Of a stretch of DNA of 10,674 nt, positions 1,698-10,674 are shown one piece after another. A program made the position numbers and the translations under genes. Numbering within the stretch: position 1 is the stretch's first letter; the number at the start of each line of letters is the position of its first letter. The DNA lies in NCBI GenBank assembly GCA_013821585.1, contig JACDGO010000039.1:1-10674 (forward strand), in the 5' to 3' direction. The stretch is from Sphingomonadaceae bacterium (GTDB lineage: Bacteria; Pseudomonadota; Alphaproteobacteria; Sphingomonadales; Sphingomonadaceae). The notes under the pieces were generated by a model. That model searched no databases, was not told the DNA's origin, and saw nothing but the letters and a program-made list of their open reading frames with translations.

Positions 1698-3095
1698 ATG
1701 ATGGCCGACACAGACTATGACGTCCTTGTCATCGGCGCCGGACCCGGCGGCTATGTCGCGGCGATCCGCGCGGCGCAGCTGGGGCTGAAGACCGCGTGCG
1801 TCGAGAGCCGCGAAACGCTCGGCGGCACCTGCCTCAACGTCGGGTGCATACCTTCGAAGGCACTGCTGCATTCGTCCGAGCTGTTCGAAGAGGCGCATTC
1901 GGGCGCGCTCGCCAAGTTTGGGATCAAGATCGACGGCGCGAGCCTAGACATGGATCAGATGCACGCGGAAAAAGCGCTTGCGGTCAAGGAGTTGACGGGC
2001 GGGATCGCGTTTCTGTTCAAGAAGAACAAGGTCGAATGGCTGAAGGGTCAGGCGGCGTTCGTGGGCGCGAACAGCGTCACCGTCGACGGCAAGACGGTGA
2101 TCGCGAAGAACATCGTGATCGCGACCGGATCGTCGGTGACGCCCTTGAAGGGCGTCGAGATCGACCAGAAGGTCGTCGTGGATTCGACAGGGGCGCTCGC
2201 GTTGCCGAAGGTGCCGGAGCACATGGTTGTGATCGGCGGCGGGGTGATCGGGCTCGAGCTCGGCAGCGTCTGGCGGCGGCTCGGCGCGAAGGTGACGGTG
2301 GTCGAGTTCCTCGACCAGATCCTCCCCGGCTTCGACGGCGAGGTGCGCAAGGAGTGCGCCAAGCTGTTCAAGAAACAGGGCTTCGAGCTGATGACCTCGA
2401 CCAAGGTAACCGGCCTCAAGGTCAAGGGCGGAAAGGCGACGCTGACGCTCGAATCCGCGGCGGGCGGTAGCGCGACGACGATCGAGGCCGATGCCGTCCT
2501 CGTCTCGATCGGGCGTAGGCCGAACACCGACGGCCTGTCGCTCGACAAGGCGGGGCTCGCGGTCAACGATCGCGGCCAGATCGAGACCGACGCGCGCTTC
2601 CAGACCTCGGTTCCCGGAATCTGGGCGATCGGCGACGTGATCCCGGGGCCGATGCTCGCGCACAAGGCCGAGGACGAAGGGATCGCGGTCGCCGAAAATA
2701 TCGCGGGGCTGACCGGAATCGTGAACCACGACGTCATCCCGAGCGTGGTCTATACGATGCCCGAGATCGCCGGCGTCGGCCTGACCGAGGAGCAGGCGAA
2801 GGAAAAGGGCACGATCAAGGTCGGCAAGTTCCCGATGATGGCGAACAGCCGCGCCAAGACCAACCGCGACACCGACGGCTTCGTGAAGGTGATCGCCGAC
2901 GCCAGAACCGACCGCGTGCTCGGCGTGTGGATCGTCGCCAGCCTCGCCGGAACGATGATCGCCGAAGCGGCGCTGGCGATGGAATTCGGCGCGACGAGCG
3001 AGGACATCGCCTACACCTGCCACGCGCACCCGACGCACTCGGAGGCGCTCAAGGAAGCGGCGATGGCGGTGCAGGGCAAGCCGATCCATATCTAG
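1698..3095 (+). CDS. lpdA: Dihydrolipoyl dehydrogenase, E3
   Basis: This 465-aa FAD flavoenzyme reoxidises dihydrolipoamide on E2 and passes electrons to NAD+. The N-terminal FAD-binding motif is VIGAGPGGYVAA (residues 11-22). The redox-active disulfide is GGTCLNVGCIPSK, with Cys45 and Cys50. The NAD-binding Rossmann motif is VVIGGGVIGLELG (about 177-189). The second FAD contact, GIWAIGDV, follows. The dimer-domain active site HAHPTHSEAL supplies His444 and Glu449. All hallmark residues are present and the length is normal for the family. The start is ATG ATG at 1698/1701, after GAGGGACG, and either ATG could be used. It is the last gene of the sucA-sucB-lpd operon. A GC-rich palindrome lies 26 bases after the stop. 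This E3 could also serve other 2-oxoacid dehydrogenases, but its position assigns it to the 2-oxoglutarate complex. Confidence 0.96.
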   Translation: MMADTDYDVLVIGAGPGGYVAAIRAAQLGLKTACVESRETLGGTCLNVGCIPSKALLHSSELFEEAHSGALAKFGIKIDGASLDMDQMHAEKALAVKELTGGIAFLFKKNKVEWLKGQAAFVGANSVTVDGKTVIAKNIVIATGSSVTPLKGVEIDQKVVVDSTGALALPKVPEHMVVIGGGVIGLELGSVWRRLGAKVTVVEFLDQILPGFDGEVRKECAKLFKKQGFELMTSTKVTGLKVKGGKATLTLESAAGGSATTIEADAVLVSIGRRPNTDGLSLDKAGLAVNDRGQIETDARFQTSVPGIWAIGDVIPGPMLAHKAEDEGIAVAENIAGLTGIVNHDVIPSVVYTMPEIAGVGLTEEQAKEKGTIKVGKFPMMANSRAKTNRDTDGFVKVIADARTDRVLGVWIVASLAGTMIAEAALAMEFGATSEDIAYTCHAHPTHSEALKEAAMAVQGKPIHI

Positions 3096-3389: not shown

Positions 3390-4670
3390 TCAGGCGGTGA
3401 TGGCGCCGAGGATGGTATGAAACGGGAGTTTTCCGGCGAGGCGGGCAGTATCGACGGTTGAGCGCAGCGCGGCTTCGGCGTCGGCTGCCCACTTGGCGCG
3501 ATATCCGTTGGTGACCTTTCGCTGGATGACACTGGGCCTGAGCGCCCGCTCGCTGACATTGTTGGTGGCATCGACCTGGCCGGCGAAATCGCAGAAGGTG
3601 AGCATCTGGTCGCGCGCACGGCGGATTTGCCCGAGCAGGTCGCGGGCGAGCGGGCAATCAGTGGCGCTGGCCAGGATGACATCGAGATCGCGCGCCAACA
3701 CGCGTTTTCGCTTCTTCACCGTGGTAATGGCGAGGCTGGCGATATCGCGAGCAAGCCTGAAGGCGCGGTCGAACCAGAGCTGGAGCCGCATTCCGATCAG
3801 ATCGTTGCCATGCTCGGCAACGAAGCGCGCTTTTCGATCCAGATGCGCGAGACAGGTCTGGTGGCGAGTGGCGTGCCCTTGCTGGGCGGTATAGCGATCC
3901 GATATCCACACTTCGGGCCGGTGCCCGGCCATGGTGTCGCGCACGACCTGGGCCGCACGGCTGAACTCGGCGGTATGGACAACGGCTTGGGGCGAGCAAA
4001 ACACCCATTGGTAAGCATTGCACCCCTCGATCCGCACGCCCGTCTCGTCGCAGGCCACAACATCGGCGCCGCGCAGGGCTGTAAGGGCATTGTTGCGCCC
4101 GGCGGCAAAGATCGGTGCGGCGCGCTTGAACATGTTCATCAACGCGCCCTGGCTGAGATTGAGCCCGAACAGGTCGGCAAACACGCCTTGCAGCCGTTCG
4201 TAGGAAAACAACTGGTTCGACTTGAGGTAGAGCGCCAGCGCATGAATGCGCCGGCCAAAGGGCGTGCCCTGCGCCGCCTGAGGCATGGGCGCGGCGGTTG
4301 CCTTGCCGCACTTCGCGCAACGGCACTTCAACCTGCGGTGGCGTTTGACGACAGGCTTGACCTCGGGAAGATCGATCTCGTCATATTCCCCGATCACCGC
4401 ACCTGCTTCATCTTCAGAAAACGGCAGACCGCAATGGCGACAGTGCGTCGGCCGGTGATCTTCCATCATGTCCGGCGCTTCGGCCAAGTCACGAGCATGG
4501 CCCTTATGGCCGGGCTTGGCCCCGCCGGGGCGCGAACCTTCCCGCTTCGCTTTCCGGTCCGTCGATGGCGGCTTCGAGGATGTCCGCGAGGTCTTGTCGG
4601 GCCGCTGCAGCCCTAAAACCAGGTCGACCAGCTCCGGCTTCGTAAGCCGCTCAAGATCCTCGCGATTCAT
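3390..4670 (-). CDS. IS66-family transposase (TnpC type)
   Basis: This 426-aa DDE transposase catalyses movement of the surrounding element. The N-terminal region includes the Ser/Pro/Lys/Gly-rich stretch around residues 29-58 (SSKPPSTDRK, GGAKPGHKGH) seen in IS66 transposases. A zinc-finger-like region follows, with C77xxC80 and C118xxC121. The catalytic core has Asp208 in VVACDETGVR, Asp258 in VWISDRY, and Glu374 in NNVSERALRP, giving a full DDE triad. The C-terminal end matches the usual family ending in outline. The start ATG is 31 bases inside the right inverted repeat, and the stop is 4 bases inside the left repeat, so the gene fills almost the whole element. No strong ribosome site is visible before the ATG. 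The protein looks intact and potentially active. Confidence 0.95.
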   Translation of the reverse strand: MNREDLERLTKPELVDLVLGLQRPDKTSRTSSKPPSTDRKAKREGSRPGGAKPGHKGHARDLAEAPDMMEDHRPTHCRHCGLPFSEDEAGAVIGEYDEIDLPEVKPVVKRHRRLKCRCAKCGKATAAPMPQAAQGTPFGRRIHALALYLKSNQLFSYERLQGVFADLFGLNLSQGALMNMFKRAAPIFAAGRNNALTALRGADVVACDETGVRIEGCNAYQWVFCSPQAVVHTAEFSRAAQVVRDTMAGHRPEVWISDRYTAQQGHATRHQTCLAHLDRKARFVAEHGNDLIGMRLQLWFDRAFRLARDIASLAITTVKKRKRVLARDLDVILASATDCPLARDLLGQIRRARDQMLTFCDFAGQVDATNNVSERALRPSVIQRKVTNGYRAKWAADAEAALRSTVDTARLAGKLPFHTILGAITA

Positions 4671-8107: not shown

Positions 8108-8779
8108 ATGCGCCGCCTTGCCCTGATCCTCCCCCTCACCGCGAATTTGCTTTCTTCGTGCGGACCGAAGACCCTCGCGCTGCCCGTCGACCCGGTCGAT
8201 CGCGCCGCGAGCTGCGGCGTGGTCGCCGCCGCCGACGCGCGCAAGAGCGGCAACAGCAGCGACGTCGGCAAGCCGCTGCCCCTCGCGCAGTCAGCGCATG
8301 TGCTCCACTATGCCATGCTCGCCGCGTCCGCGGGCAAGAAGTTCGAAGCCGGGGTGGCCGCGAACGTGGTCCAGCGCATGCCCACTCTTGAGGCGGGAAT
8401 CACCTGCGGCCAGTGGCAGCCGCTGAAAGCGCAATGCGACGCGGCCTATCCGCAGGCGGCGATGGCGTCGCCGGCGCCGCTTCCCGCGGATCCGCTCGGC
8501 GCGCAGCTCGGCTGCTCGGCGCTTAGCGAGTTCATCGGAAAGGCGATGGCGAGCCAGGACGCCGCCTATGGCGATCAGCTTACCCAATACCGGCTATTGG
8601 GCGCGCGTCTCGATCCCGGCATCGGCGCGAAGCTCTCCGCGCGCGGCATCAAGGGGTTCGAGGCGACGCAGGCGGCGCGCAACAAGGCGCTCGGCCAGGT
8701 CGTGAAGCTCGGGTCGCCCGCGGCGGTGCTCGACGCATGCATCGCCAAATATCCCGCGCCTGCTAAAACGGCGGTGTGA
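8108..8779 (+). CDS. Putative lipoprotein of unknown function
   Basis: This 223-aa protein has a short basic N-terminus, a hydrophobic stretch and a lipobox (MRRLALILPL then LLSSC), so Cys18 is the predicted lipidated residue and the mature protein would be membrane-anchored. The remainder is Ala-rich, with several further cysteines (for example ASCGVV, GITCGQW, KAQCDAAY, LGCSALS, LDACIAKYP), which could form disulfides in the periplasm. I do not recognise a named domain. The reading frame is open far upstream, but the lipobox fixes the start at ATG 8108. The ribosome site is weak. The stop overlaps the GTG start of the channel gene (GTGTGA at 8776-8781), so the two are probably expressed together. 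Confidence 0.78.
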   Translation: MRRLALILPLTANLLSSCGPKTLALPVDPVDRAASCGVVAAADARKSGNSSDVGKPLPLAQSAHVLHYAMLAASAGKKFEAGVAANVVQRMPTLEAGITCGQWQPLKAQCDAAYPQAAMASPAPLPADPLGAQLGCSALSEFIGKAMASQDAAYGDQLTQYRLLGARLDPGIGAKLSARGIKGFEATQAARNKALGQVVKLGSPAAVLDACIAKYPAPAKTAV

Positions 8780-9399
8780 CTGGCGACCTTTCCGCTTTCC
8801 GCTTCTTCCTGCCGTGGCTCGACCTGTTCGGCATCGCGGTGTTCGCGGCTTCGGGCGCGCTCGCCGCCGCGCGCGCGCGCCAGACGCTCGTCACATTTTC
8901 GTTCTTCGCGCTCGTCACCGGGGTCGGCGGCGGGACGGTGCGCGACCTGCTGATCGGCGCGCCGGTGTTCTGGGTGCATGACTGGCGCGTGCCCGCGATC
9001 TGCCTCGGGACCGCGCTCGCGGTCTGGATGACGCCGGTGCGCTTCTGGTGCGGCCGCGCGCTCGACTGGTTCGATGCGGTGGGCCTCGCCGTCTATGCGG
9101 TGTTCGGCGCGGCCAAGGCGCTCGGCCTCGGCATCCCCGCGCTTCCGGCGGTCATGATGGGCGTCATCACCGCGTGCGTCGGCGGTATCGTCCGCGACGT
9201 GCTCGCGGGCGAGCCGTCGATCCTGCTGAGGCCCGAGATCTACGTGACGGCCGCCGCGCTGGCGGCGGGGCTGTTCGTCGCGCTCGTGCTGACCGGCGCT
9301 CCCGTCATGGCCGCCGCGATCACCGGGGCGCTGGCGGGCTTCGGACTTCGCGCGCTGGCGATCGTGCGCGGGCTGTCGATCCCGGCCTACCGGGGGTGA
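8776..9399 (+). CDS. TRIC-type cation channel family protein (YadS/UPF0126)
   Basis: This 207-aa inner-membrane protein belongs to the prokaryotic TRIC family, whose members form trimers with a cation-conducting pore in each subunit. The two internal repeats are plain. Repeat one runs from DLFGIAVFAASGALAA (16-31) to GVGGGTVRDLL (49-59). Repeat two runs from DAVGLAVYAVFGAAKAL (100-116) to CVGGIVRDVLAGE (134-146). A C-terminal seventh hydrophobic segment follows (about 156-172, then 176-195). The paired GG(G)xVRD motifs and Lys114 in repeat two are family hallmarks. The GTG at 8776 overlaps the lipoprotein stop by four bases, indicating translational coupling. The physiological ion and role in bacteria are not settled, so nothing more specific is claimed. 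Confidence 0.9.
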   Translation: MTGDLSAFRFFLPWLDLFGIAVFAASGALAAARARQTLVTFSFFALVTGVGGGTVRDLLIGAPVFWVHDWRVPAICLGTALAVWMTPVRFWCGRALDWFDAVGLAVYAVFGAAKALGLGIPALPAVMMGVITACVGGIVRDVLAGEPSILLRPEIYVTAAALAAGLFVALVLTGAPVMAAAITGALAGFGLRALAIVRGLSIPAYRG

Positions 9400-9446
9400 T
9401 ACCGGCTATGAGACGACGATCATCCTCTGCGCGTTGTTGATCCCGA

Positions 9447-9770
9447 TCAACCGCGCTGCGCGAGCCAAGAACGAAGCTGGCTTTCTATTACCGCCCGATC
9501 GACACTCCGCGCATTTTCATGCGTTGTCAGGTAGTTGTCGTTCACGGCGTCGATCAGCGGCTGCTTTCGATGCCGGGCCGACAGTATCAGGGTAAGGGCA
9601 TTGGCGCTTCGGACCCAAAGCGAATATTCCTCAAACGTCATCCCCAAAAATTCGTATAGCTCCTCGCGACTATCCCCCTCATGCCATGCCGCAACGAAAT
9701 CGTCGATTTCGTCAGGGACGACGCGGCCGTCCAGCGCGAGATCGATAAACTGGGCAGGGCATTCAGACAT
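9447..9770 (-). CDS. Putative antitoxin/immunity partner of the E3-type RNase toxin
   Basis: This 107-aa acidic protein begins at ATG 9770. A TTG start seven codons upstream is possible but less likely. Its core is EIDDFVAAWHEGD (residues 21-33) and ELYEFLGMTFEEYSLWV (37-53), followed by LTLILSARHRKQPL. From memory, small proteins with the EIDD..WH...LGM..EEY.LWV pattern are commonly encoded directly after short colicin-E3-type RNases, which fits the neighbour here. The start overlaps the toxin's restored stop by eight bases (ATGTCTGA), the usual toxin-antitoxin coupling. The gene looks intact although its toxin is broken. Codons are more AT-rich than in the flanking genes, suggesting separate acquisition. 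The antitoxin or immunity role is inferred from pairing and acidity. The alternative is a stand-alone regulatory protein. Confidence 0.65.
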   Translation of the reverse strand: MSECPAQFIDLALDGRVVPDEIDDFVAAWHEGDSREELYEFLGMTFEEYSLWVRSANALTLILSARHRKQPLIDAVNDNYLTTHENARSVDRAVIESQLRSWLAQRG

Positions 9771-10019
9771 CGATGCGTCGTCCTCGAACAAAAGCCTTGC
9801 GCGGCTCGCCTGTTACCGGATCCACGACGGCCACATGCCGTCCACGGCGATCATATCCTTAATTTCGCCGTGAAATGAATCGCAAGTGTATAGGCGCGTG
9901 CCGTCCTTGCTCCGCCAGCGGCGTTCGCTGTCGAATGCGCCGAGATAGTCGCATTGGTCGAGCAGCGACCGCGAAGGAATCGGAAGCCGGGTTAAGTTAG
10001 CGGCGCACCACGCCCACAT
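9763..10019 (-). pseudogene. Colicin-E3-type cytotoxic RNase toxin, frameshifted
   Basis: From ATG 10019 the frame reads RLPIPSRSLLDQCDYL, RRWRSKDGTRLYTCDSFHGE and IK, then runs out of register and stops at 9813. One frame over, the rest follows exactly: YDRRGRH, VAVVDPVTGEPRKAF, VRGRRIDV, stop at 9763. Adding one base at about 9856-9857 rejoins the halves into an 85-aa product. The layout matches the C-terminal 16S-rRNA-cleaving domain of colicin E3 (YEWDGQHGELEGY ... IGAFDPKTG ... NRSI), without import or receptor domains. The E3 catalytic Asp510 and His513 correspond to Asp47 and His50, and Arg545 to Arg81 of the repaired protein. Glu517 is replaced by Lys54, and the usual Trp before the Asp is Cys46. 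The toxin is probably inactive. Its start overlaps the GNAT stop by 23 bases. Confidence 0.75.
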
Positions 10020-10554
10020 CCCTGCAGCTCTTCGGTTCCTCCGGCGGATCGTCGGGTTCGGCGAGAACGCATTGCCAGAAGCCGACGTCGACCCACTGGC
10101 CGCGGACATGGCCGACCTCGCGGTAGACGCCCGCGCGGCGGAAGCCGACCGATTCGTGAAGCGTGATCATCCGGTCGTTGGGCATGCCGATGCCCGCGAT
10201 CGCCTGGGTGAAGCCCTGCTCCTTCAAGGTCGCGATCAGCGCGCCGTAGAGCAGGCGGCCGACGCCGCGCCCCCCGACGTCGCCGGCGATGTAGATCGAC
10301 GTCTCGACCACCCAGCGATAGGCCGCGCGCGCCCGGAACGGCGTGGCGTGGGCATAGGCCAGGACGCCGCCGCTTTCGGTCTCGATCGCCACGAGCCAGG
10401 GGTGGCTGTCGCCGCTCGTCTCGATCCGGCCGCGCATCGTCTCGGCGCTCGGCGGCGTCGCGTCGAGCGCGACTCCAGTCGAAACGACATAGGGCGCATA
10501 GATCGCGGCGATCGCGGCTGCGTCGTCGGGCGTCGCGGCGCGGATGCCGATCAT
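9997..10554 (-). CDS. GNAT N-acetyltransferase, phosphinothricin-acetyltransferase-like
   Basis: This 185-aa acetyl-CoA-dependent transferase belongs to the PAT/YncA-like branch. The N-terminus IRAATPDDAAAIAAIYAPYV is the usual first strand and helix. WLVAIE and GVLAYAHATPFRARAAYR form the central strands, and TSIYIAGDVGGRGVGRLLY (85-103) is the acetyl-CoA motif A with GGRGVG. NDRMITLHESVGFRRAG and REVGHVRGQWVDVGFWQ complete the fold. Relatives acetylate phosphinothricin, methionine sulfone/sulfoximine or other amino acids; the substrate here is unknown. The start at ATG 10554 is chosen because the domain begins there and because it overlaps the upstream gene's stop by four bases (ATGA), although the frame is open further. 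The final ~20 residues (AEPDDPPEEPKSCRD onward) are a polar tail beyond the domain, encoded where the toxin gene begins. Confidence 0.88.
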   Translation of the reverse strand: MIGIRAATPDDAAAIAAIYAPYVVSTGVALDATPPSAETMRGRIETSGDSHPWLVAIETESGGVLAYAHATPFRARAAYRWVVETSIYIAGDVGGRGVGRLLYGALIATLKEQGFTQAIAGIGMPNDRMITLHESVGFRRAGVYREVGHVRGQWVDVGFWQCVLAEPDDPPEEPKSCRDVGVVRR

Positions 10555-10674
10555 CGCGTCGCCCAGGCGATCAGCAGGTCGATCAGGCGCGGCGCTGGCA
10601 ACGGTGCCGCGACGGCCGGGCATTCGAGGCAGCGCGCCTGGATCGCCGCCCCGGTCGCGAGCGCGCGCGCGTCA
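10551..10674 (-). CDS. Unrecognised protein, C-terminal 40 residues (partial)
   Basis: The frame enters from the right edge and reads DARALATGAAIQARCLECPA, then VAAPLPAPRLIDLLIAWATR, stop. GC-rich third positions and an ATGA overlap with the GNAT start support it as real coding sequence. It contains CLEC, a CxxC pair, but forty residues are too few to name a family. It would be the promoter-proximal neighbour of the GNAT gene and is probably co-transcribed with it. Confidence 0.55.
   Translation of the reverse strand, partial: DARALATGAAIQARCLECPAVAAPLPAPRLIDLLIAWATR

What the first reader, a model, noticed from the sequence alone, without database searches (positions are those of the whole stretch)
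9763..10019. Decayed stand-alone colicin-E3-type RNase toxin, readable across two frames
Seen directly: one frame gives RRWRSKDGTRLYTCDSFHGE, the adjacent frame gives YDRRGRHVAVVDPVTG to GRRIDV-stop, and a single added base at about 9856-9857 unites them into 85 aa. From knowledge of colicin E3: the D-x-x-H-x-x-x-E pattern and the later Arg are catalytic. Here Asp47, His50 and Arg81 are kept but the Glu is Lys54, and the usual Trp is Cys46. Inference: a chromosomal toxin inactivated by at least one and probably several hits. The deletion is not in a homopolymer and coincides with active-site changes, which argues against a simple sequencing error. Automated annotation would likely miss it or call a meaningless hypothetical.
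Basis: partly seen in the sequence, partly recalled or inferred. Interest (0 to 1): 0.72.

Follow-up and report, generated by a model that had tools for sequence, protein, structure and literature searches.

The report
Broken ribosome-cutting toxin, intact partner gene
A bacterium carries a foreign fragment holding a broken copy of a small colicin-E3-like toxin next to an intact partner gene, most likely its antidote, and intact versions of the pair occur in several unrelated bacteria and in some phages.

Summary
On the minus strand, two pieces in adjacent frames (9861-9989, then 9766-9855) match consecutive parts of a stand-alone colicin-E3-type RNase (PF09000), E 2.3e-12 and 2.3e-6, searched apart. 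Decay is supported apart from the frame break: at 21 columns conserved in at least 95% of 139 intact relatives the window differs at 5 (4 without the column at the break), including Trp to Cys; 138 of 139 relatives differ at 3 or fewer.

An intact 107-aa gene (9770-9447) overlaps the toxin's end. Its family, unnamed in Pfam, NCBIfam and PADLOC, lies directly downstream of the toxin in 33 loci; 22 of 31 assessable ones add a peptidase-like gene, which the window lacks. The pair sits in a ~600-bp low-GC insert between genes whose stops overlap in two congeners and lie 30 nt apart in a third.

Best reading: a captured toxin-antidote module with a dead toxin. Antidote function is inferred; reads were unavailable, so a base-count error is not excluded.

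The parts
9858..9995 (-). toxin piece 1: N-terminal and catalytic part of an E3-type RNase (Asp, His kept; Trp to Cys)
   Evidence: (9861-9989, 48.2 bits, E 2.3e-12)
9763..9855 (-). toxin piece 2 in the adjacent frame: C-terminal part with the conserved later His and Gly-Arg, and the stop at 9763-9765
   Evidence: (9766-9855, 29 bits, E 2.3e-6)
9853..9863 (-). region of the frame break, at the column where 139 of 139 intact relatives have Glu
9447..9770 (-). intact 107-aa partner gene (probable antidote), start overlapping the toxin's stop
   Evidence: 29 sequences in its family, itself included; 139.4 bits to a family model built without it; 0 of 15 conserved columns changed
9400..9996 (.). 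inserted low-GC segment (57.6% GC) between two convergent host genes
   Evidence: empty site in L056, L057 and L058; GC by codon position
8776..9399 (+). left flank: PF03458 (Pfam 'Gly_transporter') membrane protein gene
9997..10623 (-). right flank: GNAT acetyltransferase gene, same strand as the module and upstream of it (ATG 10551 is the likelier start)

Best explanation
A ~600-bp foreign segment landed between two convergent chromosomal genes. [quoted passage not shown] The toxin is dead: its frame is broken in the catalytic strand and four other highly conserved residues are changed. The partner is intact and may still be translated. Shown: homology, frame break, changed residues, partner intactness, empty sites in congeners. 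Inferred: RNase activity of the ancestor, neutralisation by the partner, order of events.
For: Pieces match consecutive parts of intact relatives. Of 139 intact toxins, 111 deviate at 0 of 21 conserved columns and one at the maximum of 4; the window deviates at 5, or at 4 of 20 without the break column. The partner deviates at 0 of 15 columns conserved in at least 90% of 48 relatives. The partner lies directly downstream of the toxin in 33 loci, from Sphingomonas to Leptospiraceae, Nitrospira and phages. 21 of 21 relatives scanned match PF09000, and the model of an intact relative matches colicin E3 structures first (pLDDT 93; 1jch_A, TM 0.77 by query). Empty sites in three of six congeners.
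Against: No reads, so a base-count error cannot be ruled out; the four other changes were read from the same assembly. The reference set is 21 loci plus the 120 best of 1254 hits and favours consensus-like sequences. One open-frame relative, L019, has Asn in place of the catalytic Asp, so single active-site changes occur elsewhere. The start is weak evidence: 30 of 33 relatives have a common start codon 35-39 codons before the catalytic Asp and the window has none there, but it has an ATG at 46, the position of L017's only common start in the range searched. The window partner's 90% cluster holds two sequences on two contigs, the longest 12,586 bp; that contig could not be reached and its toxin may be intact. 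The partner model is only moderate (pLDDT 70) with no structural match.
Confidence: 0.8

Rival explanations
1. The frame break is an assembly or sequencing error and the toxin is open and perhaps active in the organism.
For: The genome is a 537-contig assembly; the break is a small shift; the partner is intact, as expected if the toxin were alive; an in-frame ATG exists at 10019.
Against: Four other conserved columns are changed, including a Trp kept in 139 of 139 relatives; the only in-frame common start near the family's position lies inside the GNAT gene.
Confidence: 0.13
2. The module is an orphan cassette of a polymorphic toxin or bacteriocin (toxin tip plus immunity gene) rather than a self-contained toxin-antitoxin module.
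For: Toxin-first order with a 3' partner is the order of polymorphic toxin-immunity pairs (PMC3482391, section 43). Vibrio and Bosea plasmids carry short ColE3 ORFs without the partner, the Vibrio one among pyocin-domain genes.
Against: Eight ColE3 places from the class search, in open frames of 119 to 2249 aa, lack the partner, whereas the 33 partnered toxins lie in open frames of 69 to 239 aa. The size ranges overlap, so this is a tendency. A partnered module lies in the repressor-integrase region of a Gordonia phage.
Confidence: 0.2
3. Programmed frameshifting or a two-chain toxin: the two pieces are used as they stand.
For: Both pieces keep most of their conserved residues.
Against: The relatives examined have one open frame (protein searches such as can show open frames only); no relative with the same split was seen; conserved residues outside the break are lost.
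Confidence: 0.02

Closest known systems
Colicin E3 cytotoxic RNase family (Pfam PF09000; NCBI name 'colicin E3/pyocin S6 family cytotoxin')
   Same: Sequence and predicted fold of the intact relatives; Asp, His and later Arg of the active site kept in the window
   Different: No room for receptor or translocation domains in the relatives (most of the 120 listed are 75-80 aa); different partner; the window copy is broken
Tox-ColE3 of polymorphic toxin systems with Imm-Cloacin or Imm45 (PMC3482391, passages and section 43 seen)
   Same: Toxin domain; toxin gene before the partner gene
   Different: The partner matches no such Pfam family; that section names BECR-fold RNases, RES, Ntox24 and DOC as the chief domains shared with toxin-antitoxin systems, not ColE3
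Type II toxin-antitoxin modules
   Same: Two small overlapping or adjacent genes, patchy distribution
   Different: Toxin first; no DNA-binding domain recognised in the partner; no activity data
CapP/ImmA-IrrE (M78) peptidase-controlled immune operons (PMC13373217, passages seen)
   Same: The third gene of 22 of 31 assessable intact loci carries an HExxH motif; the L010 one matches PF06114 and PADLOC capP
   Different: The window has no third gene; I did not look for a CapH-like repressor; the activation route is untested

Membership tests
PF09000 Cytotoxic (E3 rRNase) | Sequence match above the curated cut-off | tested here: inconclusive
   Window pieces 12.9 and 16.2 bits, each under the 22-bit cut-off; both significant to a model of intact relatives, all 21 of which match PF09000 at E 0.001 or better
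PF09000 Cytotoxic (E3 rRNase) | Catalytic Asp, His, Glu and later Arg | tested here: inconclusive
   Asp, His and Arg kept; the Glu column lies at the frame break
PF09000 Cytotoxic (E3 rRNase) | One continuous open frame | tested here: not met
   Two frames; hence a decayed relative, not a working member
PF09000 Cytotoxic (E3 rRNase) | E3 RNase fold | not tested
   Window toxin not folded (no rejoining); an intact relative gives the E3 fold
PF09000 Cytotoxic (E3 rRNase) | Cleavage of 16S rRNA | not testable with these tools
   Needs an assay
Type II toxin-antitoxin | Small toxin and partner genes adjacent and co-oriented | tested here: met
   33 relatives, and the window's remnant
Type II toxin-antitoxin | Partner neutralises the toxin | not testable with these tools
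   Needs co-expression
Known E3 immunity families (Imm-Cloacin, Imm45) | Partner matches their Pfam families | tested here: not met
   No such match for any of 29 partner sequences; only weak hits to four other families, best E 0.015. That Pfam holds models of both immunity families is recalled, not checked
HicA/HicB (annotation of the Gordonia phage pair) | HicA and HicB domains | tested here: not met
   L028: gp52 matches PF09000, E 4.8e-13; gp51 matches nothing in Pfam at E 0.01

The most novel reading that the evidence does not exclude
The intact relatives are an undescribed, mobile three-gene system: an E3-type rRNase held by an all-helical antidote of a new family and released when a CapP-like M78 peptidase, triggered by DNA damage, cuts the antidote. 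The window would then be a domesticated remnant in which only the antidote survives and protects the host from related modules brought in by phages.
Probability: 0.25. Interest if true: 0.75.

Novelty: new variant of a known kind. Interest (0 to 1): 0.42.

Why it matters
The broken toxin alone is an ordinary pseudogene. Its surroundings point to a recurrent pairing of the colicin E3 RNase domain with a partner family that has no name in Pfam, NCBIfam or PADLOC, often with a peptidase gene that resembles known DNA-damage switches of bacterial immunity. If confirmed, it would place the E3 domain, known from bacteriocins and delivered toxins, in resident toxin-antidote modules, and toxin-dead, antidote-intact copies such as this one would be natural tests of whether orphan antidotes protect cells.

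Tried and rejected
Third-gene stub: the bases after the partner stop read somewhat like the start of the M78 peptidase, but the score (0.5 bits against 11.8-30.1 for real members) is reached by 5.1% of shuffles and 11.6% of random window stretches; rejected. Since 9 of 31 assessable intact loci also lack the third gene, I do not claim that the window lost it.

Target-site repeats at the insert ends: none convincing. Partner fold: no useful PDB match, best E 2.8. Partner profile against PDB sequences: best E 0.11, to an anti-CRISPR, not significant. Partner family against NCBIfam and PADLOC: only stray single-member hits, E 0.0062 to 0.0097. Protein search with the window's own toxin piece found no candidate, so intact relatives were reached through the partner. 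Partner search in 59 genomes (the own one counted): only the window itself; first genome-contig scan with the single sequence: none; in 396 genomes of the order: 3, counting the own. PADLOC on the two toxin pieces: nothing. PADLOC NsnC: weak, to the C-terminal end of the models where coordinates were shown, in up to 6 of 21 toxins; the name's meaning is not known to me. Literature: searches showed no paper describing a stand-alone E3 toxin with this partner; I saw listings and abstract starts, plus passages of PMC3482391 (and its section 43), PMC9990079, PMC13284704, PMC13373217 and PMC3710099. Most subscription papers and all bioRxiv preprints are missing from that library.

Full report
What is there. 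The window is a whole contig (C293) of a 2.81-Mb, 537-contig genome, 91% complete. On the minus strand, downstream of a GNAT gene (9997-10623), lie two stretches in adjacent frames. A profile of 21 intact relatives finds them in the own genome as separate hits at 9861-9989 (positions 3-45 of 77, E 2.3e-12) and 9766-9855 (positions 48-77, E 2.3e-6). In 100 shuffled windows the best score was 8.4 bits, against 47.5 and 33.2. tblastn of intact relatives against the window gives the same two-frame picture for most of them (L016, L018, L021 and L022 hit one frame only), and of the 120 listed homologues 102 hit both frames at E 0.001.

Is it dead? Aligning each piece separately to 139 intact relatives, 21 columns are conserved in at least 95%. 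The window differs at five: Pro to Arg, Trp to Cys, Leu to Phe, Gly to Ala and, at the break, Glu to Lys. The last depends on which frame is read and is not an independent hit. Of the relatives, 111 differ at none, 21 at one, 5 at two, 1 at three and 1 at four. That set is 21 loci plus the 120 best of 1254 hits, less duplicates, which makes the window look worse. L019, not in the set, has Asn for the catalytic Asp in an open frame. A common start codon lies 35-39 codons before the catalytic Asp in 30 of 33 relatives (not L006, L017, L028). The window has none there, and that position is next to the insertion junction; its nearest in-frame ATG (10019, 46 codons before the Asp) lies inside the GNAT gene, and L017's only common start in the range searched is also at 46. 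The start is therefore weak evidence. On balance the toxin is probably inactive through several changes, although no reads could be checked.

The partner. The next gene, 9770-9447, overlaps the toxin's stop and encodes 107 aa. Its search returned 29 proteins, itself included, from 5.8 billion, none with a precomputed Pfam domain. Over the 29, Pfam, NCBIfam and PADLOC give only weak or stray hits; PHROGs of unknown function match. At 15 columns conserved in at least 90% of 48 relatives the window's copy has no deviation. AlphaFold predicts seven helices at moderate confidence, pLDDT 70, with no useful PDB match.

The intact module. Partner-profile searches in GTDB and viral contigs gave 23 loci (L002-L024). 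A toxin lies directly upstream in 21; L023 starts near a contig end and L024 has none. Toxin searches in viral contigs gave 11 loci, all with the partner (L071, L074 and L076 repeat L020-L022). A search of 385 genomes of the class gave one stand-alone toxin with the partner (L059) and eight places in open frames of 119 to 2249 aa without it, besides the window's own two pieces. Adding L027, the Gordonia phage pair L028 and the faecal phage L081 (L026 repeats L005), 33 loci carry toxin and partner side by side. No two of their toxins are identical, but L077-L079 are near copies of each other, as are L016 and L022. Two short plasmid forms, L082 and L083, lack the partner, and three phage loci, L029-L031, have a partner-like frame and no toxin. 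In 22 of 31 assessable loci the next frame carries an HExxH motif and starts within 164 bases of the partner's end, mostly overlapping it. Only those of L010 and L028 were scanned in Pfam (L010 M78, 49.9 bits; L028 21.1 bits, just under the cut-off of 22); the L010 one is closest to PADLOC capP. L006, L007, L009, L012, L019, L059, L070 and L080 and L081 (plus strand only) show none; L077 and L078 end at the partner. L009 and L059 hold only 988 and 1241 bases after it.

Insertion. In the congener G006 blocks match window 8815-9395 and 9996-10673 with no gap in the congener, and the stops of the two flanking genes overlap there and in G001; in G003 30 bases lie between them. In the other three of six congeners the two genes are on different contigs or far apart. 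The inserted ~600 bp has 57.6% GC. Third-codon GC is 64% for the partner, against 89-93% for four flanking and core genes and 76% for an IS66 transposase, which fits horizontal gain.

Mechanism. [quoted passage not shown] The 139 relatives all keep Trp, Asp, His, Glu, the later His and Gly-Arg, and the one modelled folds like colicin E3. By position and constant linkage the partner is most likely the antidote; this is inference. CapP is a protease activated by ssDNA that cleaves the repressor CapH (PMC13373217, passages), so a peptidase that cuts the antidote is a reasonable guess for the three-gene form, not a result.

Verdict. The finding is real and partly rightly read: a decayed E3-type toxin. 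What matters more is that it is half of a module whose other half is intact and whose pairing I found described in none of the papers I could search.

Noticed in passing
L028 (Gordonia phage Phabuloso, ON526981, 34136-35489); also PP208924: Genes annotated HicA-like toxin and HicB-like antitoxin are, in Phabuloso, a PF09000 E3-type domain (E 4.8e-13) and a member of the partner family, between the immunity repressor and the integrase; LitninMcQueen has the same annotation under matches to both queries.
   Followed up: partly
L029, L030, L031 and one search hits: Partner-like frames without a toxin in a Pseudomonas, a Streptomyces and a Vibrio phage; one search lists 53 Streptomyces and 5 Vibrio records. 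They could be phage-borne antidotes, or only a shared motif.
   Followed up: partly
L019 (Duganella sacchari) 2703-3005: Open-frame relative of the toxin with Asn in place of the catalytic Asp; possibly another inactive copy beside a partner.
   Followed up: no
window 9997-10623, minus strand: GNAT acetyltransferase, best NCBIfam match arsinothricin resistance ArsN1 family B at 192 bits, under the 210-bit cut-off.
   Followed up: no
window 3390-4670, minus strand: IS66-family transposase downstream of the lipoamide dehydrogenase-like gene; its third-codon GC (76%) lies between that of the insert's genes and that of the host genes.
   Followed up: no
L077 2293-2568: A second, extra partner-like frame upstream of an intact toxin-partner pair in a viral contig.
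   Followed up: no
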